From: Corynebacterium confusum
Lineage (GTDB): Bacteria > Actinomycetota > Actinomycetes > Mycobacteriales > Mycobacteriaceae
Assembly: GCF_030408715.1 (NCBI RefSeq)
Contig: NZ_CP047202.1
Span: forward strand, 1,717,907-1,781,906
Reading direction: 5' to 3'
Length of the DNA stretch: 64,000 nucleotides
Shown here one piece after another: positions 20,719 through 34,661 of this stretch. The notes below the pieces were generated by a model. That model did no database searches and had not been told where the DNA came from. It worked only from the letters and a program-made list of their open reading frames with translations. Each line of letters begins with the position of its first letter. Position 1 is the first letter of the stretch. The position numbers were made by a program, and so were the translations under genes.

Positions 20719-22155
20719 ATGGCTTTCGAGACCGTTCAGGACATCGTAAAGTTTATTCAGGACGAAGACGTCCGCTTTGTCGATATCCGCTTTACCGATG
20801 TTCCGGGCATCGAGCACCACTTCAGCATCCCCTCCTCCGAGTTCGACGAGGACGCCGCCGCCGAGGGCCTAGCCTTCGACGGCTCTTCCATTCGCGGGTT
20901 CACCTCCATCGACGAATCCGACATGACCCTGCTGCCGGATCCGTCCTCTGCCATGATCGACCCGTTCCGCACCGAGAAGACCCTGAACATCAAGTGCTTC
21001 GTGCACGACCCGTTCACCCTCGAGCCCTTCTCCCGCGACCCGCGCAACATCGCCCGCAAGGCCGAGGAGTACCTCAACTCCACCGGTATCGCTGACACCT
21101 GCTTCTTCGGCGCGGAGGCCGAGTTCTACGTCTTCGACTCGGTGCGCTACTCCACCGACGTCCACGAGGGATTCTTCAAGGTCGACTCCGACGAGGGCTG
21201 GTGGAACCGCAGCGCCGAGACCAACATCGACGGCACCCCGAACACCGGCTACAAGACCCGTGTGAAGGGCGGCTACTTCCCCACCGCACCGTACGACAAG
21301 ACCGGCGAAGTCCGCGACGCCATGGTCCGCAACCTGCAGGACGCCGGCTTCGACGTCGAGCGCTTCCACCACGAGGTCGGCACCGGCGGTCAGAACGAGA
21401 TCAACTACCGCTTCAATTCCATGCTGCACGCGGCCGACGATGTCCAGTCCTTCAAGTACATCATCAAGAACACCGCCGCGGCCTACGGCAAGACCGCTAC
21501 CTTCATGCCCAAGCCGCTAGCCGGCGACAACGGCTCCGGCATGCACGCCCACATGTCCCTGTGGAAGGACGGCACCCCGCTCTTCCACGACGAGTCCGGC
21601 TACGGCGGCCTGTCTGACACCGCCCGCTACTACATCGGCGGCATCCTGCACCACGCCGGCGCAGTTTTGGCCTTTACCAACCCGACGCTGAACTCCTACC
21701 ACCGCCTGGTGCCTGGCTTCGAGGCCCCCATCAACCTGGTCTACTCGCAGCGTAACCGCTCTGCGGCCATCCGCATCCCGATTACCGGCTCCAACCCGAA
21801 GGCCAAGCGCATCGAGTTCCGCGCCCCGGACCCGTCCGGCAACCCGTACTTGGGCTTTGCCGCCATGATGCTGGCCGGCATCGACGGCGTGAAGAACCGC
21901 CTGGAGCCGCACGCCCCGGTCGACAAGGATCTCTACGAGCTCCCGCCGGAGGAGGCCGCCTCCATCCCGCAGGCCCCGACCTCCCTGGAGGCCTCCCTGG
22001 AGGCCCTGCGCAACGACATGGACTTCCTGACCGAGGGCGACGTCTTCACCGAGGACCTCATCGAGTCCTACATTAAGCTCAAGGAAGACGAGGAAATCAC
22101 CCCGGCCCGCCTGCGTCCGACCCCGCTCGAGTACGAAATGTACTTCGACTGCTAG
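20719..22155 (+). CDS. glnA: Glutamine synthetase type I (adenylylated)
   Basis: This enzyme makes glutamine from glutamate, ammonia and ATP. From the ATG at 20719 ([10 protein letters not shown]) it has 478 residues. That start is preferred over the ATG two codons earlier because GGAG at 20708-20711 is then seven bases away and the sequence matches known corynebacterial GlnA. The catalytic loops are intact ([27 protein letters not shown]). The adenylylation site is Tyr406 in [10 protein letters not shown], the target of GlnE encoded about 15 kb further on. Regulation by AmtR is likely from the box upstream. Confidence 0.97.
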
Positions 22156-22181
22156 TTCCCAAGGTACAGTTACCTAACTGA

Positions 22182-22262
22182 CCTGCGGTTATTTTCATAA
22201 CCGCTAGGTAAAGGTCAACCCCTCGACAATTCTGACGAAAGTCGAGGGGTTTACCATTTTTC
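22182..22262 (+). terminator. Terminator region after glnA
   Basis: Two hairpins are visible. GCGGTTAT/ATAACCGC sits around 22182-22204. AACCCCTCGAC (22217-22227) pairs with GTCGAGGGGTT (22241-22251), then a T-rich tail CATTTTT. Confidence 0.85.
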
Positions 22263-22392
22263 GTACCAACGACGGACTGGTTTCTGCTCGAATGGTCCCG
22301 TTCTCGCCCGTTTTGATTGCTATTTCCAGCACCCGATCACGACTGCTAGGCCACAGCCCCCCCTGACAAGTTCCAAGAGGGCTCGCGACTTC

Positions 22393-22980
22393 TTATACTG
22401 CCTCGTCATACTGTGGCAGGACGTTCGCACCCGCAATCTCGATACTGTCCTCACATACGTTACCCTTGTGCGGGCGCCCACCCCGAAACGGTCTTCGACC
22501 AGGACCTTCGTCCACTTTCCTGCCCAGGTAGCACTTCATCCGCTCGCCCTCACTAATAACGACCATGCCCTTCAAACTGGGGTTGAGCGTTTCGATAAGG
22601 TTGCGAGGTTTACGGCAACCCTGTGCCCACTCCTTGGTATAGGAGGGAGGTCCTTGCTGGGCGTAATTATGAAAACGATCACGCTTGTAGATATTGACCA
22701 ACACAGAGGTGTGGGAGCAAGTCTTGCCGGACGTATTCACCTTGTCCAAGACGTGTCTTGGCAGTGGCATAGGCAGCTGACCCGACGCGGTTTTCTTGGC
22801 TACCGCTTCGTGACCCCGTTTGGTGCCGGTCCGAAGTGGGCAGAGCACCTTGCCGGACAGTACTGGACACTCGAATCGTCGGATACCCGAAACCGAGACT
22901 CAGCAGCTGCTACGCGACCCTGGCACCTCGAAGCTAGGAGTGGGATCATTTTAGCTTCAGGAAATTGCCGAGCTAGTTTC
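22393..22980 (-). pseudogene. Transposase-like remnant, frameshifted
   Basis: An open frame at 22393-22848 codes for 151 residues with the stretch EWAQGCRKPRNLIETLNPSL. It resembles the C-terminal RN-x-x-E-x-x-N-x-x-LK signature of a transposase-like family common in actinobacteria. Upstream, in a different frame on the same strand, the segment SVQYCPARC ends at a stop. It resembles the YCP motif that precedes the C-terminal region in that family. This pattern suggests a decayed gene with at least one frameshift. The family match comes from memory of the motif and is uncertain. The first methionine-like codon at 22848 lacks a convincing ribosome-binding site. Confidence 0.42.
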
Positions 22981-22982
22981 GC

Positions 22983-23204
22983 CTAGATTAGACGATCCAC
23001 AGCGTCCCAAAAGGACTTCCGCGTTCGAGTACATAACGGTAGTCCTAAGACTCGAAACGCAAGAGACTCCAGTGGGCACCGCAAACGCTCATAACTCTCC
23101 ACCGACAGCTGCAGATTCCCTGCGCTGACAAACACTGGCGAGACGATATGAACGATGGTGTTTACTCGGGTCGCAGGCGTGGGCATGAATTGTCCGGTTT
23201 TCAT
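22983..23204 (-). CDS. Doubtful small ORF, 73 aa
   Basis: An open frame beginning MKTGQFMPTP contains a mildly hydrophobic middle section and ends in an Arg/Lys-rich tail. There is no recognised domain. It sits in the accessory island between the transposase-like remnant and the ABC-F gene. It may be a piece of a decayed gene rather than a functional one. Confidence 0.2.
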   Translation of the reverse strand: MKTGQFMPTPATRVNTIVHIVSPVFVSAGNLQLSVESYERLRCPLESLAFRVLGLPLCTRTRKSFWDAVDRLI

Positions 23205-23249
23205 CTCTGTCTTTTAATCACTAGCGCTCCCGTGTGTGCAGGCATTCCT

Positions 23250-24896
23250 CTACAGCCTCGGCAGTACGATTTTTTGAGAGAATCCGATCTCGGCACAAAA
23301 CTCTTCGTCATGGCTGACTACAACTAACGCTCCTTGGTAAGACTGCAGCACTTCAGCTAACCAATTTACGGTCGGAATATCCAAGTTGTTTGTCGGTTCA
23401 TCGAGGATCAATAGCTTTGGAGGAGGATCTCTCAAAAGCTCGCAAGCAAAAGCCACCCTAAAACGCTCGCCTCCGGACAATGCGTTGACGTGAGCGTGGA
23501 CATCGTCATCGCGGAACAACAACTCAGCCAATTTATTCCGCAGCCGTTGCGGTTCAATTCGCCGGTTGGCCTCCGTGACAACCTCCCACACGGTCTTGTC
23601 TTCTGGGAGGGATATTGCCTGAGGCAAATAGCCAAATTCCCCCAACACATAATCAACGCTATAACGTCCGGCAAGCTTCGGCTCTTGACCTACGATGCTC
23701 CGGAGAAGAGTAGTCTTACCAGCTCCATTAGCACCTGCGATGCGCAGCTTCTCCGGCCCCATGATCGTCACCATGGCCGGGCAGGTCTCAGTAGCCAACG
23801 CTGGATCGTTTAGACTGAGTTGCAATACTTTCGTCCTATAAGCTAGGACAGTATCCTCGAGGTCAATATAGACCTTTTCTTCCTCTCTCAGGTGCAACTG
23901 CGCCTTTTGTACGTTTCGCCTCGAACGTTCCAGCGCCTGCTTCTGCCCCGCTTTTCGCTTCGCAGACTTCTTTTCGTGACGATTTTTGTCATTTCCCAGC
24001 GCCATTCCAGGTTTCCGTTTACTCTTCGAGAACTGCCGGCCACGGCGGGCGTCCCGGGCAAGGCGGGTCTGTAAAGCCTGTTGCTCCCGTACCTGTCGCC
24101 GCTCTTCTTGACGCGCATCCTTGAGGTCGTGAGCAGCATGCTCTTGCTCCTGCCGAATAACCTCTTGATACGCCTCGTAGTTTCCCTCAAAAACTCGCAA
24201 CTGCCCGTCGTAGAGCTCTGCTATTCGATCGACGGAATGGAGGAGTTGCCGGTCATGACTCGCAACCAATGCGGAAACATTGGCGGTTTGAAGCATAGCC
24301 ATGAGTCGTTTACGTGCGCCCGTGTCTAAATTGTTCGTAGGCTCATCCAACAAGAGATAGTCGGGGCCACCAAGCAATACAGCGCACAGAGCAATCTGCA
24401 TTGTTTCGCCCCCAGACAAAGAAGTAACCGGTCGTCGAAAAAACTCCAATGGCGACGTCCCTTCCCCGTCGTCCGAATCCAATAAATAACTTAAACCATA
24501 GCGAGAAAGCTCAGCTAGGATCTGCTCCGGCACATCCCAATCATCCCCGACGCGCTCGAACAGAGCTTCATCATAAGCTCCGGATTCCAACGCACTCAGT
24601 GCATCGATTAAGTCCCTTATCCCGAACATATCCGCGATCGTTTTCGCATCAGCTATGTCCAACTTTTGCGGCAAGTACGCTACTGAGTCGGGGACTTGAA
24701 AGTTACCCGAGGAAGCATTGAGGTTACCGTTGAGTACACGCAAGAGGCTCGTTTTGCCCGATCCGTTGGTTCCGATTAAGCCGGTCACGCCGCGGCCAAG
24801 ATGGCCCGTAACATGCGAAAAACAAGGGGTCCCGTTGGACCAAGTCAACCCCAAGTCTTGAAAAGAAATTGAAGATTGTGAATCAGAAAATCGCAC
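23250..24896 (-). CDS. ABC-F ATPase, probable ribosome-protection antibiotic resistance protein
   Basis: ABC-F proteins have two ATPase domains and no membrane part, and several free the ribosome of macrolides, lincosamides, streptogramins or pleuromutilins. This 548-residue protein has Walker A GTNGSGKTS (42-50), signature LSGGE (160-164) and Walker B LLLDEPTNNLD in domain 1. Domain 2 has GANGAGKTT (388-396), LSGGE (473-477) and LLILDEPTNNLD. Both catalytic Glu residues are present. The charged linker (about 240-350, very rich in Arg, Lys, Glu) is the region that reaches the peptidyl-transferase centre in relatives. The start is GTG at 24896 with GAAAGG ten bases upstream. The gene is of lower GC than its neighbours and has an elaborate leader. 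Resistance is inferred; a housekeeping ABC-F role is possible. Confidence 0.85.
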   Translation of the reverse strand: MRFSDSQSSISFQDLGLTWSNGTPCFSHVTGHLGRGVTGLIGTNGSGKTSLLRVLNGNLNASSGNFQVPDSVAYLPQKLDIADAKTIADMFGIRDLIDALSALESGAYDEALFERVGDDWDVPEQILAELSRYGLSYLLDSDDGEGTSPLEFFRRPVTSLSGGETMQIALCAVLLGGPDYLLLDEPTNNLDTGARKRLMAMLQTANVSALVASHDRQLLHSVDRIAELYDGQLRVFEGNYEAYQEVIRQEQEHAAHDLKDARQEERRQVREQQALQTRLARDARRGRQFSKSKRKPGMALGNDKNRHEKKSAKRKAGQKQALERSRRNVQKAQLHLREEEKVYIDLEDTVLAYRTKVLQLSLNDPALATETCPAMVTIMGPEKLRIAGANGAGKTTLLRSIVGQEPKLAGRYSVDYVLGEFGYLPQAISLPEDKTVWEVVTEANRRIEPQRLRNKLAELLFRDDDVHAHVNALSGGERFRVAFACELLRDPPPKLLILDEPTNNLDIPTVNWLAEVLQSYQGALVVVSHDEEFCAEIGFSQKIVLPRL

Positions 24897-24904
24897 AGGA
24901 AGAT

Positions 24905-24971
24905 GCCCTTTCTACAAGCCGATAGTCCAGCTGAGGGCACAAGCTGCGCCCTCAGCAATTGCGGAAAAGGC
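24905..24971 (-). promoter_or_regulatory. Putative translation attenuator of the ABC-F gene
   Basis: On the minus strand GCCTTTTC (24971-24964) follows directly after the stop codon of a five-codon upstream ORF. It can pair over eight positions (one G-U) with GAAAGGGC (24912-24905), which is the ABC-F ribosome-binding site. Nested between them is a 9-bp perfect hairpin GCTGAGGGC/GCCCTCAGC (24956-24948 with 24938-24930). A ribosome stalled on the upstream ORF would cover GCCTTTTC and free the binding site. The hairpin lacks a T tract, so translation control is more likely than transcription termination. Confidence 0.6.
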
Positions 24972-24989
24972 TTAAATCTTCACTGGCAT
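24972..24989 (-). CDS. Upstream leader ORF MPVKI
   Basis: ATG CCA GTG AAG ATT TAA, five codons and a stop, lies 76 bp before the ABC-F start codon, with a weak GGAA upstream of the ATG. Very short leader peptides are used by many macrolide-type resistance genes as drug-dependent ribosome stall sites. The reading frame is seen directly; its translation is inferred. Confidence 0.45.
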   Translation of the reverse strand: MPVKI

Positions 24990-25046
24990 AGCTTCCGTAG
25001 GAAATAGTTACTGGCCCACCTTACAACACGCGCTGCCGGTCTGCCA

Positions 25047-25202
25047 TCACCTTGACACTGATTTGGGCTCTTGAGGCTCGGCTGAAGGCCCTTCCTTGCA
25101 GAAGCCAACGAAGAGGAAGAAGTAGTCTAGAGGCACCATCAGGAGCACGGCAGACAGCATGATGTCCGCCCATAGTCCGATGTACTGGCCCAGGGCGTTT
25201 AG
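25047..25202 (-). other. Hydrophobic open frame downstream of the exonuclease gene
   Basis: The minus strand reads as an open frame through and beyond the exonuclease stop codon, shifted in frame. It encodes a hydrophobic stretch (MLSAVLLMVPLDYFFLFVGF) and a polar tail ending at 25047. It has no good ribosome-binding site. It may be the torn end of a membrane-protein gene left at the island boundary, a tiny membrane peptide, or chance. Confidence 0.25.
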
Positions 25203-28200
25203 GGCCGGCTGGTACGGATGAGATCCGCCAGTCGGTCCTGGCGCCGGTGGCCGAGAATGGCCACGGAACGCCGTACCGGCGCGTCCGGGCGGCACCCCAG
25301 GGCAGAGTTGATGACGGCCATCTTGTCCTGGTGCGCGCCGCCGACAGGAGCCAGCCCCATCGCGTTGAGCACCTCGTCAAGGCCTTCCAGTCCCGCCCGG
25401 CGCGGCTCGGCCGGGGTTACCTCGCAGCCGGCGCCAAGCCGCAGCCACACGCGCTGCCCGGGCTCGGCGCCCAGCTCCTCGAGAAAACGCCGGATGGTCG
25501 ACAGGGACGCCTGCCGCAGGCGGTTTACGCGCAGGCTGACCGCGCCCAGGTGGCTAGGCCACTGCTGCTCACCTCCTACGGGCACGCCGAATTCCGCGGC
25601 GATGCCGGCCGAGACGCCAAACCCAGACCCACGCAGGTGGTCGCTGGTCACCTCCAGCAGCAGGTGCCACGCGCCGTCGAAGTGAGCAAGCCCGCGCGAT
25701 TCCTGGATGTCCGCATCCAGTAGCTCGGGCGCCCGCTCGGTCTTGCGCACCACCCCGTCGACGGTCTCGAGGTCGCCGCTGTCGGCATAGGCGCGAATGG
25801 AGTTCTCACTGACATTGAGGCGGCCTGCTTCGGCGAACAGCTCCTCGAGTGTCACCTCGCCGCGCTCCTCGACCCGCTGAGCGATCCAGTCGGCCAAGCT
25901 GCGGTATTCGTCCAGGCCCCACTCGGCGAGCCCGTAGGAGCCATTGCCCACGCGGTGAGCCCTCGGATCGACGGCCAGCTGGTTGCGCACGCCTCGCACG
26001 TCGTCGCCGGTGATCTCAGCGATTTCTTCCGCCGTCATGGGTTCGCCGTGCAGCAACAGCATGGCGCAGGACCGGCCGCCCTGTGAATTGGACACCAGAA
26101 GGTAGTCGCCCACCCGAAGCGCCGTGCGCAACAGTCTGGCCAACCCAGTCCAGGCTTCTTCCGGGATTCCGTGATCGCGGCGGAACTCGGGCAGGTTTAT
26201 CAGCCCGTAGCCGTCGGCCGCGGCCTCCACCAGCGCGGGGAATTCCTCCAGGAACCCGGGCCGCGCCAGCAACTGGCCGTCCATTTCCCACAGGCCGAAG
26301 ACGGCGCGCAGCACCTCCTCAGGGCTGCCCCCGAGTGTCGTGTGGCCGTCCCGGAACCCCGGCCACTGCTTGTCGAGCTCGGCTGCGTCCCGGACTGTCC
26401 CGATGTTTTCGGCCAGGCGCTGCGCGGTGGCGCGTGCCAGCTCGCAATCGCTATCGACGGCCTCCCGCAGCGCTTTTTCGATCTGGCGCACGCGCTCGCG
26501 GGTCAGGCCCAGGGCTTGGCCCACCTCATCGAGCGTGGCCCCGCCGACCCAGCGCTCACGCACGATGGTCAGTTTTCGTATGTCCGCGCCGCACGCGGCT
26601 GCGATTTCTTCCACGCAGTCGTCCCACAAACGCTGCAGGCTGCGGGCATGGTCGTAGTCCGGGTAGACCGCAGCGGGCAGCTCCAGCGGTCCGTTTAGGC
26701 CCAGCCAGCCCAACGCGCGCTCCGTGGCGTCGTTCGTGCCCGCGGCATCCTCGTCGGCGTACACGCTGGTGGTCACGTCCGCCGCATCCGCGGCCCCGCT
26801 TTCCGCCGCGGGGTCGGTGGGAGCTTCCGGGGTATCTAGGGCATCGAGGGCGGCGAGCACGACGGTCTCCACGAGCTGGTGGAGCTTGACCTTACCGACG
26901 CCGGGCAGATCGCCCAGTTCGTGCACGGTGGCCTCCAGCATGACCGGGAAGCGGCTCTGCCACAACGCCGAGGCCTTGCGCACTGAGGAATTGTTGAACT
27001 CCAGCGGAGTATTCACCGCCAGTACCGGCGACAGCTCCACCAGCGGGGTGCTGGCATGGGAGCGCACCCACCCGCGGGCGATGGCGGCGGTGATCGCCTC
27101 GGCCTGGCTGCCCAGGTAGTCCAGCTGGTCCCCGAACCAGGGGAAGAGCGTATTCGCCGCCCCGCCCGGCGCTGCTGCCGGCCCCGTGGCTTCCTCGGCG
27201 GCGGGTGCGGCTGGGCTAGGCGATGCCGACGGTACTACGCCCTCATCCACCTCCGGGGCGCCAACCGCCGCGGGGACCGCACCCAGGGCCTTGAGCAGCT
27301 GTCCGAAGGTCTTCTCGTCGACGATGGGAACGCCCAGGCTGCGCGCCTTCTTCGCCTTGCCGCTCATCGAGTCCGGGTTGGCCGAGACCACGAGTACCGA
27401 GCGCTTGGTCACCCCGCCGACGTCCAGCCCGGCGGCCCGGGCGCGCGACTCCCAGGTCTCGCGGGGTAGATCCAGCGCGCCGGTGAAGGTCACCCGGTCT
27501 CCCGGGGCAAGGTGGACACCCACGGTGGCTTCCCCGGTCACGGGGCGGGCGACCAATTCGCCCACGAGCTCGTCCGGCAGGCCCAGCTGCGCGGCGAGTT
27601 CGGTCAGGACTTGCTGCTCGGCGGGCGTGACCACGCCGTCCAGCCAGGCCTCGACGGCCAGCTGGCGCAGGAAATCCTCGTGGATATCGAGCACGTCCTG
27701 CAGGCCCAGGCCCGACTCTAAGGCGGAGGCCTCCAGGGTTTTGAGCTCCGAAGCCGACAACTTCTTGTCGGCCAGTGCCGCGGCCAGGTGTCCGCGGTAG
27801 GTCTGCCCCTCCGCACCGCCGGCCGGCGGCAGCAGCTGGGCCAGGCGCGCCAACCAGGCCTGTGGCTCCTCGGCGGCCTTCGCGGCATCGTCGCGGGTCA
27901 GCAGCGCCGCCGGTTGCGCTGCGCCGACCTGACCGGGTGCAGCGATGGCCAGCCCCACGCCCGCGGGAACGGGCACGCCGTAATCACGGACCATACACCG
28001 CAGCAAGGCGGCGGTGGCCTCCGCGTCCGCAAGGGCGGAGTGCGCCCGACGGTTGGAAATGCCCACCGCGTCCAGCGCCTCGGCCAGCTTGCGCTTACCG
28101 AGTGCCTGGTGGCTCAGGACCTGGGTGTCCACGACGCTGGATTTACTTACTGCCAGTGGGATCCCCAGGCGCCCGAACTCGTAGCCCAGGAAACGGACCT

Positions 28201-28483
28201 CGAAAGGCGCGTTGTGGGCCACCAGCACGCGGCCGCTCAGCGCCGCCGCGAACCGGCCCGCGATGTCCGCGAACCGCGGCGCCGCCACCAGATCGGAGGC
28301 GGACAGCTGGTGGACGAAGCTGTTGGGGACGTCCCGGTCCGGCTGGACGAGGGTCTCGAAGGCGCCCTCGACGCGGAAGTTATGGTCCAACAGCACGGCC
28401 CCGATTTCAATGATCCGGTCGGTCGCCCCGAAGCCGGTTGTCTCAAAGTCAACGACCGCGTATCCCGGTAAAGACACTGCCAT
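25199..28483 (-). CDS. Composite DnaQ-like exonuclease / BRCT / sigma-4-like DNA-binding protein
   Basis: The protein has 1094 residues from the ATG at 28483 (ribosome-binding site AGGTGG). Residues 5-170 form a DEDDh 3'-5' exonuclease: Asp12 and Glu14 in VVDFETTGF, HNAPFEVRFL at 90-99, and the His/Asp of HSALADAEA near 150. The usual Asp of the second motif is Glu here. Residues 205-310 look like a TerB-type helical domain, 327-402 a BRCT domain. After a Pro/Ala linker, a helix-hairpin-helix near 517-546 resembles the RNA polymerase alpha C-terminal domain. A sigma region 4-like helix-turn-helix follows at 640-675 (LTRERVRQIEKAL). Winged-helix-like segments occupy about 810-855 and 860-915. 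The product may process DNA at transcription complexes, but this is inference. It abuts the accessory island at its 3' end. Confidence 0.75.
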   Translation of the reverse strand: MAVSLPGYAVVDFETTGFGATDRIIEIGAVLLDHNFRVEGAFETLVQPDRDVPNSFVHQLSASDLVAAPRFADIAGRFAAALSGRVLVAHNAPFEVRFLGYEFGRLGIPLAVSKSSVVDTQVLSHQALGKRKLAEALDAVGISNRRAHSALADAEATAALLRCMVRDYGVPVPAGVGLAIAAPGQVGAAQPAALLTRDDAAKAAEEPQAWLARLAQLLPPAGGAEGQTYRGHLAAALADKKLSASELKTLEASALESGLGLQDVLDIHEDFLRQLAVEAWLDGVVTPAEQQVLTELAAQLGLPDELVGELVARPVTGEATVGVHLAPGDRVTFTGALDLPRETWESRARAAGLDVGGVTKRSVLVVSANPDSMSGKAKKARSLGVPIVDEKTFGQLLKALGAVPAAVGAPEVDEGVVPSASPSPAAPAAEEATGPAAAPGGAANTLFPWFGDQLDYLGSQAEAITAAIARGWVRSHASTPLVELSPVLAVNTPLEFNNSSVRKASALWQSRFPVMLEATVHELGDLPGVGKVKLHQLVETVVLAALDALDTPEAPTDPAAESGAADAADVTTSVYADEDAAGTNDATERALGWLGLNGPLELPAAVYPDYDHARSLQRLWDDCVEEIAAACGADIRKLTIVRERWVGGATLDEVGQALGLTRERVRQIEKALREAVDSDCELARATAQRLAENIGTVRDAAELDKQWPGFRDGHTTLGGSPEEVLRAVFGLWEMDGQLLARPGFLEEFPALVEAAADGYGLINLPEFRRDHGIPEEAWTGLARLLRTALRVGDYLLVSNSQGGRSCAMLLLHGEPMTAEEIAEITGDDVRGVRNQLAVDPRAHRVGNGSYGLAEWGLDEYRSLADWIAQRVEERGEVTLEELFAEAGRLNVSENSIRAYADSGDLETVDGVVRKTERAPELLDADIQESRGLAHFDGAWHLLLEVTSDHLRGSGFGVSAGIAAEFGVPVGGEQQWPSHLGAVSLRVNRLRQASLSTIRRFLEELGAEPGQRVWLRLGAGCEVTPAEPRRAGLEGLDEVLNAMGLAPVGGAHQDKMAVINSALGCRPDAPVRRSVAILGHRRQDRLADLIRTSRP

Positions 28484-33480: not shown

Positions 33481-34236
33481 TCAGTTGTCCTCTTCGTCTA
33501 GCTCCGGGCGGGTCAAAAACTCCGCAACCGCTTCCGGGGCCTCGATGAATTCCTGGGTGGCCCGGTACGCATCGGTGTCGCGGTAGGCCACGTCCTGCAC
33601 GCCGAAGTCGTCGAACTGGAAGATCTGCGCCCTGGGCGTGCCCAGCAGGATGGGCGAATGCGTGGCGATGAGGAACTGAGCGCCCCGCTGGACGGCCTGG
33701 TCGATTTCGGCGAGCAGCGCCATCTGGCGGATGACCGACAGGCCCGCCTCCGGCTCGTCCATGAGATAGAGCCCGCGGCCGTCAACGTATTCGCCGAGGA
33801 TGTCGAAGACGGATTCGCCGTGGGAGCGTTTCATCAGGTCCACGCCCCGAGCGAGGTTGTTGCGCCCGGCGGCCCGCTCAGACTCGTCGCGCAGCAGGTC
33901 GAAGTGGGTCTCGTTGCGCAGGTAGTACCCGCGCAGGAGCGTCTCATCGAAGCGCAAGGCCAACCAGTGGGACAGCTCCGACTCCGTGTTGGTCCCCCTC
34001 ACCGCTTCGGGCTGCAGTGGGCCGCCCCGCCCGCTGAAACCGGCGCTCAGGGCGATGGCCTCCAGCAGCGTGGATTTGCCGGCGCCGTTTTCGCCGGCGA
34101 AGAACGTCACCGGGCTGCGAAAATCGATTTTACCGAACTCCTGCAGGTAACGGGTTATCGGCAGCTGCCAGACATAGGCGCTACTCGCGCGGTGCCGGCG
34201 CTGCTCGAAAGTCCGGAACGCTACCGTTGTCAGCAT
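33481..34236 (-). CDS. AAA ATPase, ABC/SMC-like (AAA_21 type)
   Basis: This 251-residue soluble ATPase has Walker A GENGAGKST and Walker B GLYLMDEPEAGLS, followed by the D-loop-like LS and a histidine switch in LIATHSPILLG. Its fold resembles RecF/SMC/OLD-type ABC ATPases, and the coiled-coil insert is short. No partner nuclease or effector lies next to it. The following gene is a small membrane protein. Comparable stand-alone ATPases are common and of unknown function. Confidence 0.83.
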   Translation of the reverse strand: MLTTVAFRTFEQRRHRASSAYVWQLPITRYLQEFGKIDFRSPVTFFAGENGAGKSTLLEAIALSAGFSGRGGPLQPEAVRGTNTESELSHWLALRFDETLLRGYYLRNETHFDLLRDESERAAGRNNLARGVDLMKRSHGESVFDILGEYVDGRGLYLMDEPEAGLSVIRQMALLAEIDQAVQRGAQFLIATHSPILLGTPRAQIFQFDDFGVQDVAYRDTDAYRATQEFIEAPEAVAEFLTRPELDEEDN

Positions 34237-34254
34237 GTCGGGCCACGACCTTCC

Positions 34255-34524
34255 CTAGTAGAGTCCGCGCAGCCGGGCAGGCAGCGCGTTCGCCATCCTT
34301 TCAGCCAGCCCAGTCTCGGCGCCGCCAGGGGGCAGGGCGCTGGCTGGGTGCAGCCCTACCCTACTGGTAAAAGGCAGGTACGTTTCGACGTTTCTGGCTC
34401 CGGCCACCACGAAGTCGTTGACCGTGGCCGCTATGGCCACGCCGCCCAAGATGGGCACTCCCAGCGCGACTGCCAGCATGCCGAGCGTTTGCCAACGCCT
34501 GCGGGCGGTGTAAGAACAGGACAT
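34255..34524 (-). CDS. Small membrane or exported protein, 89 aa
   Basis: No family was recognised. The product starts with a basic segment and a hydrophobic stretch (TLGMLAVALGVPILGGVAIAA) that could be a signal peptide or a membrane anchor, followed by a polar tail. The ATG has AAAGG nine bases upstream. It lies 18 bp before the AAA ATPase gene on the same strand and probably shares a transcript with it. Confidence 0.6.
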   Translation of the reverse strand: MSCSYTARRRWQTLGMLAVALGVPILGGVAIAATVNDFVVAGARNVETYLPFTSRVGLHPASALPPGGAETGLAERMANALPARLRGLY

Positions 34525-34661
34525 AAACGTTACCTTTCCGTAATCTTCTAAGGGAAAGAATAAGCGTCGCGTCTGTGTGGGCGGTGGCGACTTCCTGCTA
34601 TCTCGCTGCCGGTTGCCCGGCCCTGCCCGGTCGTGCCCCGCGGGGGCGGATGCAGCCCGCG

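What the first reader, a model, noticed from the sequence alone, without database searches (positions are those of the whole stretch)
24897..25000. Leader-peptide translation attenuator before the ABC-F gene
The minus strand shows a five-codon ORF (MPVKI) whose stop codon is directly followed by GCCTTTTC. That octamer is complementary (one G-U pair) to GAAAGGGC, the ribosome-binding site of the ABC-F gene. A perfect 9-bp hairpin is nested between the two. This is the geometry of drug-inducible attenuation: a ribosome stalled on the tiny ORF would hide GCCTTTTC and open the binding site. Short leader peptides of this kind control erm and several ABC-F genes. The sequence MPVKI matches no leader I know, so the inducer may be new.
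Basis: partly seen in the sequence, partly recalled or inferred. Interest (0 to 1): 0.82.

Follow-up and report, generated by a model that had tools for sequence, protein, structure and literature searches.

The report
Three-codon leader controlling ribosome-protection gene
In a Corynebacterium genome, a tiny three-codon reading frame just before a likely antibiotic-resistance gene appears to act as a drug sensor: its RNA folds over the gene's start, and a ribosome halted there by a drug would unlock it, a known type of switch seen here in a new lineage.

Summary
In detail: ATG-CCA-GTG-AAG-ATT-TAA, GCCTTTTC, a nested hairpin, and GAAAGGGC at the ABC-F ribosome-binding site. The pairing is larger than reported: about 30 pairs join the leader ORF and its own binding site to the ABC-F binding site and GTG start (z -4.2). 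Shuffles rarely match it (2 and 0 of 1000).

Relatives decide it. Leader mini-ORFs precede ABC-F relatives in Corynebacterium, and native leader/gene arms pair better than swapped arms (0 of 100,000 permutations, 17 representatives). Relatives point to GTG, not ATG, as the start: MKI, three codons, rather than MPVKI.

That matches known ABC-F leaders: MIN (vmlR), MR[I/M] (cplR), MK[L/Q] (vmlR2), MLV (are5sc). For these, papers report or infer stalling near the start codon by lincosamides, streptogramin A and pleuromutilins, so the peptide does not suggest a new inducer.

Best explanation: a translational attenuator (no terminator-like site found), probably induced by those drugs; this is inference. 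The modelled release is partial, and column covariation was not shown. New member of a known kind. Side finding: in 20 of 20 distinct ATG-start MKI-x-S/A leaders the predicted promoter makes the leader ORF leaderless.

The parts
25018..25047 (-). candidate promoter: -35 ATGGCA (25047-25042), 18 nt, -10 TAAGGT (25023-25018); start of transcription expected near 25011
   Evidence: weak consensus match, best within about 75 nt upstream; not flagged by the stricter scan; TAAAGT in the other genome L009; 34 nt from -10 to GTG as in L090 (34), L107 (35), L092 (36)
24992..24996 (-). leader Shine-Dalgarno GGAAG
   Evidence: sequence; same element before GTG in L090 and L107
24972..24983 (-). leader ORF GTG-AAG-ATT-TAA (MKI), most likely reading
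   Evidence: 8 nt after GGAAG; GTG/ATG-AAG core shared with relatives
   Evidence: present, but ATG is 2 nt from the SD and is not kept in L150, L090 or L107
24959..24997 (-). 5' arm of the long-range stem (leader SD, ORF, stop, GCCTTTTC 24971-24964)
   Evidence: MFE and centroid
24930..24956 (-). nested 12-pair hairpin, loop 24944-24942
   Evidence: MFE; two substitutions in L009 both keep pairing, each one-sided (G-U to A-U, G-C to G-U)
24884..24917 (-). 3' arm of the long-range stem: ABC-F SD GAAAGGGC (24912-24905), GTG start (24896-24894), first codons
   Evidence: MFE
23250..24896 (-). ABC-F ATPase, TiaA (ARE5)-like ribosomal protection protein, 548 aa

Best explanation
The 5' leader is a translational attenuator. 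Without drug, the leader ORF GTG-AAG-ATT-TAA (MKI) and the bases around it pair with the ABC-F Shine-Dalgarno and GTG start and hide them; a ribosome reads only three codons and leaves, and the stem re-forms. When a drug that blocks the peptidyl transferase centre (most likely a lincosamide, streptogramin A or pleuromutilin) holds the ribosome at the leader start, its footprint covers the 5' arm, the long stem cannot form, and the ABC-F binding site is left with only a weaker local hairpin, so more protein is made. Shown: the ORF, the complementarity, its statistics, and the recurrence of the architecture in relatives. Inferred: transcription start, translation of the leader, stalling, drug identity, resistance function of the ABC-F protein.
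For: Fold -51.4, z -4.18. A ribosome modelled on the leader start (footprint -13 to +16) lowers the cost of opening the ABC-F binding site from 14.4 to 8.4 kcal/mol in the window and 16.9 to 7.5 in L009; 42 of 52 leaders ease by at least 3, median 8.8. 5'-arm shuffles reach the window's pairing 0 of 100 times; 33 of 52 leaders had 5 or fewer of 100. Native arms beat swapped arms among 17 representatives, 0 of 100,000 permutations; the window pair is best in its row and column. In the 8 leaders of the MLT/M/K-F/I-RVSA type, a ribosome at the start codon lowers the cost from 15-18 to 3.5-7 kcal/mol while one at the last codon leaves it at 15.6-18.3, as start-codon stalling predicts. Of the 23 best-matching loci from other genera (ABC-F 40-43% identity), 20 have a leader of 3-5 codons such as MLS, MLF, MIS. 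Two Streptomyces relatives at about 41% identity carry the leader MVGDDDISG, which the tiaA paper toeprinted (section 7 read). No terminator-like site in 24850-25250.
Against: Modelled release is partial: the binding site still costs 8.4 kcal/mol, and the GTG itself becomes less accessible (0.33 to 0.09) while the SD rises (0.01 to 0.39). 10 of 52 leaders ease by less than 3 kcal/mol, five more by only 3.1-3.5; 11 of 52 had more than 20 of 100 shuffles as good. Column covariation is not shown: RNAalifold found no two-sided change in A2 or A3. In the swap test native was best in its row for 5 of 17 and in its column for 7 of 17, and relatedness is not accounted for. 2 of 40 window genes give similar release values. 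MKI itself was seen only here and in one other genome (L009/L089). Leader ORFs in relatives were chosen by eye; by duplex energy alone the chosen ORF was not among the top three in some loci (for example L090, L099, L144, L147). MRK was a weaker tripeptide than MIN in vmlR, so sequence may matter somewhat.
Confidence: 0.72

Rival explanations
1. Transcription attenuation: the nested hairpin or a Rho site ends transcription unless a ribosome stalls on the leader, as in vmlR, are5sc and lmrC.
For: Published for several ARE ABC-F genes (passages). Strong GC-rich nested hairpin; actinobacterial terminators may lack a U tract (recalled).
Against: No terminator-like site; the hairpin stays folded whether or not the leader is occupied, so it is no switch by itself; the pairing hides the start site directly. 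[quoted passage not shown]
Confidence: 0.15
2. The ORF starts at ATG (MPVKI) and a macrolide-type, peptide-specific stall at codons 3-5 induces the gene.
For: ATG is present and in frame in both genomes; any stall position within the ORF opens the site about equally (8.2-9.9 kcal/mol).
Against: ATG is 2 nt from the SD; not kept in L150, L090, L107; peptide ends differ widely among relatives (MKI, MKIFS, MKISQ, MKIARRTA); five residues is short for tunnel-dependent arrest (recalled).
Confidence: 0.12
3. The stem only sets a low constant level of translation, or couples the gene to the leader by re-initiation; no drug sensing.
For: No expression data; release in the model is partial; one other window gene has a similar geometry.
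Against: Leader ORFs and arm complementarity recur in many diverged ABC-F loci.
Confidence: 0.1

Closest known systems
cplR (C. difficile) leader, uORF MR[I/M]; vmlR2 leader, uORF MK[L/Q] (PMC10201436, passages)
   Same: three-codon M-basic-X leader before an ARE ABC-F gene; for cplR the SD is accessible only on stalling, and translational attenuation alone was sufficient in a mutant reporter
   Different: Firmicutes; cplR also has transcriptional attenuation, and no terminator-like site was found here
vmlR leader, uORF MIN (PMC9226507, passages)
   Same: three codons, lincomycin induction, leader inside the repressing stem, SD-sequestering hairpin
   Different: terminator/antiterminator switch in addition
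are5sc (MLV) and tiaA (MVGDDDISG) leaders (PMC12421871, section 7 and passages)
   Same: actinobacterial ARE5 genes; ABC-F of the tiaA-leader-bearing relatives about 41% identical to this one; stalling at the leader start codon by LSAP drugs, not erythromycin; tiaA apparently regulated at translation
   Different: are5sc regulated at transcription; different leader sequence and structure
Corynebacterium erm(X) leader (PMC3350403, passages)
   Same: drug-resistance gene of Corynebacterium with a short leader peptide gene, suggested there to act by translational attenuation
   Different: rRNA methylase, erythromycin suggested as inducer, not an ABC-F gene
ermC and msrD leaders (recalled; for msrD only listings and the start of an abstract seen)
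   Same: stalled ribosome on a leader peptide frees a downstream gene
   Different: peptide-specific macrolide arrest

Membership tests
Three-codon-leader (LSAP-sensing) ABC-F attenuators | very short leader ORF with its own ribosome-binding site before an ABC-F gene | tested here: met
Three-codon-leader (LSAP-sensing) ABC-F attenuators | RNA structure that hides the gene start and is incompatible with a ribosome on the leader | tested here: met
   (release partial)
Three-codon-leader (LSAP-sensing) ABC-F attenuators | leader ORF kept in relatives | tested here: met
   52 of 56 distinct Corynebacterium leaders assigned an ORF, by eye; 20 of 23 loci from other genera; lengths and sequences vary, exact MKI only in this and one other genome
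Three-codon-leader (LSAP-sensing) ABC-F attenuators | start-codon stalling and induction by LSAP drugs | not testable with these tools
   needs toeprinting and reporters
Transcription attenuators of ABC-F genes | intrinsic terminator alternating with an antiterminator | tested here: not met
   no terminator-like site; nested hairpin unchanged by leader occupancy; Rho or U-less termination not tested
Macrolide (erm/msr type) leader peptides | conserved arrest motif several residues into the peptide | tested here: not met
   peptide ends vary; within the MK group only the first two or three residues are shared
ARE5 ABC-F (TiaA/LmrC) proteins | full-length similarity to characterised members | tested here: inconclusive
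   about 41% to Streptomyces genes whose leader equals the published tiaA leader; NCBIfam ribosomal-protection ABC-F model 311.6 bits, below its 380 cut-off; no tree built

The most novel reading that the evidence does not exclude
Corynebacterium ABC-F genes use a translational attenuator in which the start region of a tiny leader ORF pairs directly with the start region of the resistance gene, so that only one of the two starts can be open, and a ribosome held at the leader start releases the gene. In one clade, also on plasmids pA505 and pLEW279b, the leader ORF is leaderless: the mRNA would begin at or next to the leader AUG, making a 5'-terminal drug sensor read by leaderless initiation. 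Leaderless leader peptides are already reported in this genus for ilvB (PMC5784534, passages), so the new part would be their use as drug sensors.
Probability: 0.4. Interest if true: 0.56.

Novelty: new member of a known kind. Interest (0 to 1): 0.45.

Why it matters
Short leader ORFs switch ABC-F ribosome protection in Firmicutes and Streptomyces; this extends the scheme to Corynebacterium, including two plasmids (one of C. jeikeium). It predicts inducible rather than constant resistance to lincosamides, streptogramin A and pleuromutilins. The leaderless variant, if real, makes it testable whether start-codon-stalling drugs hold 5'-terminal starts well enough to control a gene.

Tried and rejected
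Column covariation: RNAalifold on 17 MKI-x-type leaders (4 pairs) and 14 ML/MF-type leaders (16 pairs) found no two-sided change; the sub-clades use different registers, so an arm-swap test was used instead. A first impression that L009 shows a compensatory change in the nested hairpin (notebook) was wrong: the two substitutions lie in different pairs and are each one-sided (corrected). The notebook remark that the upstream flank differs (62%) came from an ungapped comparison and is wrong: the upstream flank matches L009 at 97.5% (23129-25726, which includes the gene) and 92.6% (26256-28409), with a gap between. Downstream of the gene, however, the last 2.9 kb of L009 has no match to the window, so whether the insertion site is the same on that side is open. 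The related-loci scan kept 80 of 180 loci, one close (99%), the rest at 33% or less. Rfam: one hit, below its gathering score. PDB: 6 distinct sequences at E <= 1e-40, namely YbiT, PoxtA, EttA and Uup; no structure was predicted. L150 was aligned with wrong coordinates; that row was discarded.

Full report
What is there. On the minus strand, 24989-24972 reads ATG CCA GTG AAG ATT TAA, followed by GCCTTTTC (24971-24964), a hairpin, and GAAAGGGC (24912-24905), which ends 8 nt before the GTG start (24896) of a 548-aa ABC-F gene. RNA folding of 25010-24870 gives -51.4 kcal/mol, z -4.18, 0 of 200 shuffles as good. The stem joins 24997-24959 to 24917-24884 and encloses a 12-pair hairpin. It buries the leader Shine-Dalgarno GGAAG, the leader ORF, the ABC-F Shine-Dalgarno and two of the three bases of the ABC-F start codon.

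Chance. Of 1000 dinucleotide shuffles of the leader, 254 held an SD-preceded mini-ORF, 2 matched the window in closing and releasing the binding site, and 0 matched the arm duplex. Among 40 window genes tested (ORFs of 150 aa or more, guessed starts), 2 had a release of 6 kcal/mol or more: the ABC-F gene and a gene at 33658-34551. Alone, the element is suggestive.

Relatives. Of 242 genomes of the genus, 64 have an ABC-F match at E <= 1e-60, the window's own included. Upstream DNA was taken for 63 of these. Sixty-four loci were examined, because one genome is present twice (L009, L089); 63 had a usable start and gave 56 distinct leaders, and 52 were assigned a leader ORF by eye. Types are MKI (window, L009), MKIFS/MKIRS/MKISA/MKIHS, MKISQ, MKIARRTA/MKTARRTA, MKIAACF, MKNFALSA, MNSEVLVK, MKNLRVPAAEQQR/MKNLRVPAAAKQR, MLTFRVSA/MLIRRVFA and kin, and longer MLI- or MLN-type leaders. 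33 of 52 had 5 or fewer of 100 arm shuffles reaching the native pairing, 11 of 52 had more than 20, and the window had 0. In the ribosome model 42 of 52 leaders ease the ABC-F site by at least 3 kcal/mol; the other 10 are L111, L134, L090, L142, L143, L144, L146, L147, L148 and L149. In the swap test among 17 representatives that I chose, native arms averaged -22.5 and swapped arms -16.0; 0 of 100,000 permutations were as good; native was best in its row for 5 of 17 and in its column for 7 of 17; the window pair (-30.5) was best in both. The permutation takes no account of relatedness. RNAalifold gave no two-sided changes.

Which start codon. GTG 24983 lies 8 nt after GGAAG; ATG 24989 lies 2 nt after it. 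L090 (GGAAGAACAGTGAAGAAC), L107 (GGAAGACCAGTGAACAGC) and L150 (ACGCCAGTGAAGATC) keep the GTG but not the ATG. The best promoter match in the window (ATGGCA-18-TAAGGT) ends 34 nt before GTG; of 24 GTG-type leaders listed, 20 have 34-39 nt (exceptions L091 59, L102 21, L133 49, L135 65). The window's match is weak and the stricter scan found none; a transcriptome paper on C. diphtheriae reports a conserved -10 and only a weakly conserved -35 (PMC5784534, passages).

Mechanism. With the leader occupied at its start, the window's binding site costs 8.4 instead of 14.4 kcal/mol to open and keeps a weaker local hairpin. SD accessibility rises from 0.01 to 0.39, but that of the start codon falls from 0.33 to 0.09. 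Release is thus partial in this crude model. In the 8 leaders MLT/M/K-F/I-RVSA, of the two positions tested (first and last codon) only a ribosome at the first opens the site (15-18 to 3.5-7, against 15.6-18.3); the six MLIRRVFA leaders and L091 are intermediate at the last codon. That fits drugs that stall at the start codon. No terminator-like site was found in 24850-25250.

Known systems. PMC10201436 (passages) gives uORFs MR[I/M] for CplR, MK[L/Q] for VmlR2, MIN for VmlR and MAGN for LsaA, which it considers likely to be stalled by pleuromutilin, lincosamide, streptogramin A and nucleoside antibiotics with little context specificity, and reports translational attenuation sufficient in a mutant reporter. 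PMC9226507 (passages) shows that translation of the vmlR MIN uORF is needed for induction; MDN and MDK work as well, MRK less well. PMC12421871 (section 7) shows inhibition of the MLV (are5sc, shown with an AUG-mutated start) and MVGDDDISG (tiaA) leaders by LSAP drugs and not erythromycin, at the start codon. Two Streptomyces plasmid relatives of the window gene (40.9% and 40.7% identity; L182, L184) carry exactly MVGDDDISG; a third (39.5%, L183) carries MVIAGDDDITG. A scan of 301 genomes of the family found matches in 239; of the 23 best loci from other genera, 20 have a leader of 3-5 codons such as MLS, MLF, MIS or MLL, all but one with TTG start. So MKI is a new member of an established kind. 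I found no report of an ABC-F leader in Corynebacterium: the titles listed (20 of 72, 20 of 28, 20 of 98, 15 of 168, 11 of 11, 15 of 43 papers) name none; PMC12421871, PMC6723617 and PMC10219788 contain the word Corynebacterium 0 times in the main text; passages of PMC3350403, PMC5784534 and PMC4046766 speak of erm(X), tet(W) and amino-acid leaders only. Subscription papers are not covered.

Side finding. In 20 of 20 distinct MKI-x-S/A leaders with ATG start, the predicted -10 ends 7-8 nt before the ATG (the -10 could lie anywhere in about 75 nt). In 5 of the 20 the -35 is TTGACA or TTGACG at 17 nt; in the rest it is weaker. This predicts a leaderless leader ORF. Plasmids pA505 and pLEW279b carry such a leader. 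Leaderless transcripts are common in the genus, and the ilvB leader of C. diphtheriae is itself leaderless (PMC5784534, passages). For the ABC-F leaders this is prediction only.

Context. The ABC-F region has about 51-55% GC against about 62-72% on either side, which suggests acquisition. The other genome carries the gene beside the same upstream gene; its downstream flank does not match the window. The genome has 4 WhiB-family matches; no link to this gene was tested.

Noticed in passing
L099, L105, L114, L119, L121 and kin; plasmid loci L180 and L181, upstream of the ABC-F gene: Leader ORFs MKIRS/MKIFS/MKISA/MKIHS have a predicted -10 that ends 7-8 nt before the ATG (20 of 20 distinct), so they look leaderless.
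   Followed up: partly
L154-L174, about 54-88 nt before the ABC-F start: Other genera of the family carry 3-5 codon leaders, nearly all with TTG start, many after GATCGGAG (MLS, MLF, MIS, MLL; 20 of 23 loci).
   Followed up: partly
L133/L135 and L090/L107/L134/L144-L149 leaders: L133/L135 have a nested hairpin with an apparent two-sided G-C to A-U change; the others look like three-segment attenuators in which a middle segment can pair with the leader end or the gene SD (read by eye).
   Followed up: no
window 33658-34551 (+), about 83 nt upstream of the start chosen: A second window gene has a mini-ORF (VSR) whose occupancy would ease its binding site by 7.2 kcal/mol; start uncertain, may be chance.
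   Followed up: no
window about 22000-25250: GC drops to 51-55% between a glutamine synthetase gene and an exonuclease-like gene in a GC-rich chromosome; the ABC-F gene looks acquired.
   Followed up: partly
L182, L183, L184: Streptomyces plasmid relatives have a second ABC-F gene directly after the first.
   Followed up: no
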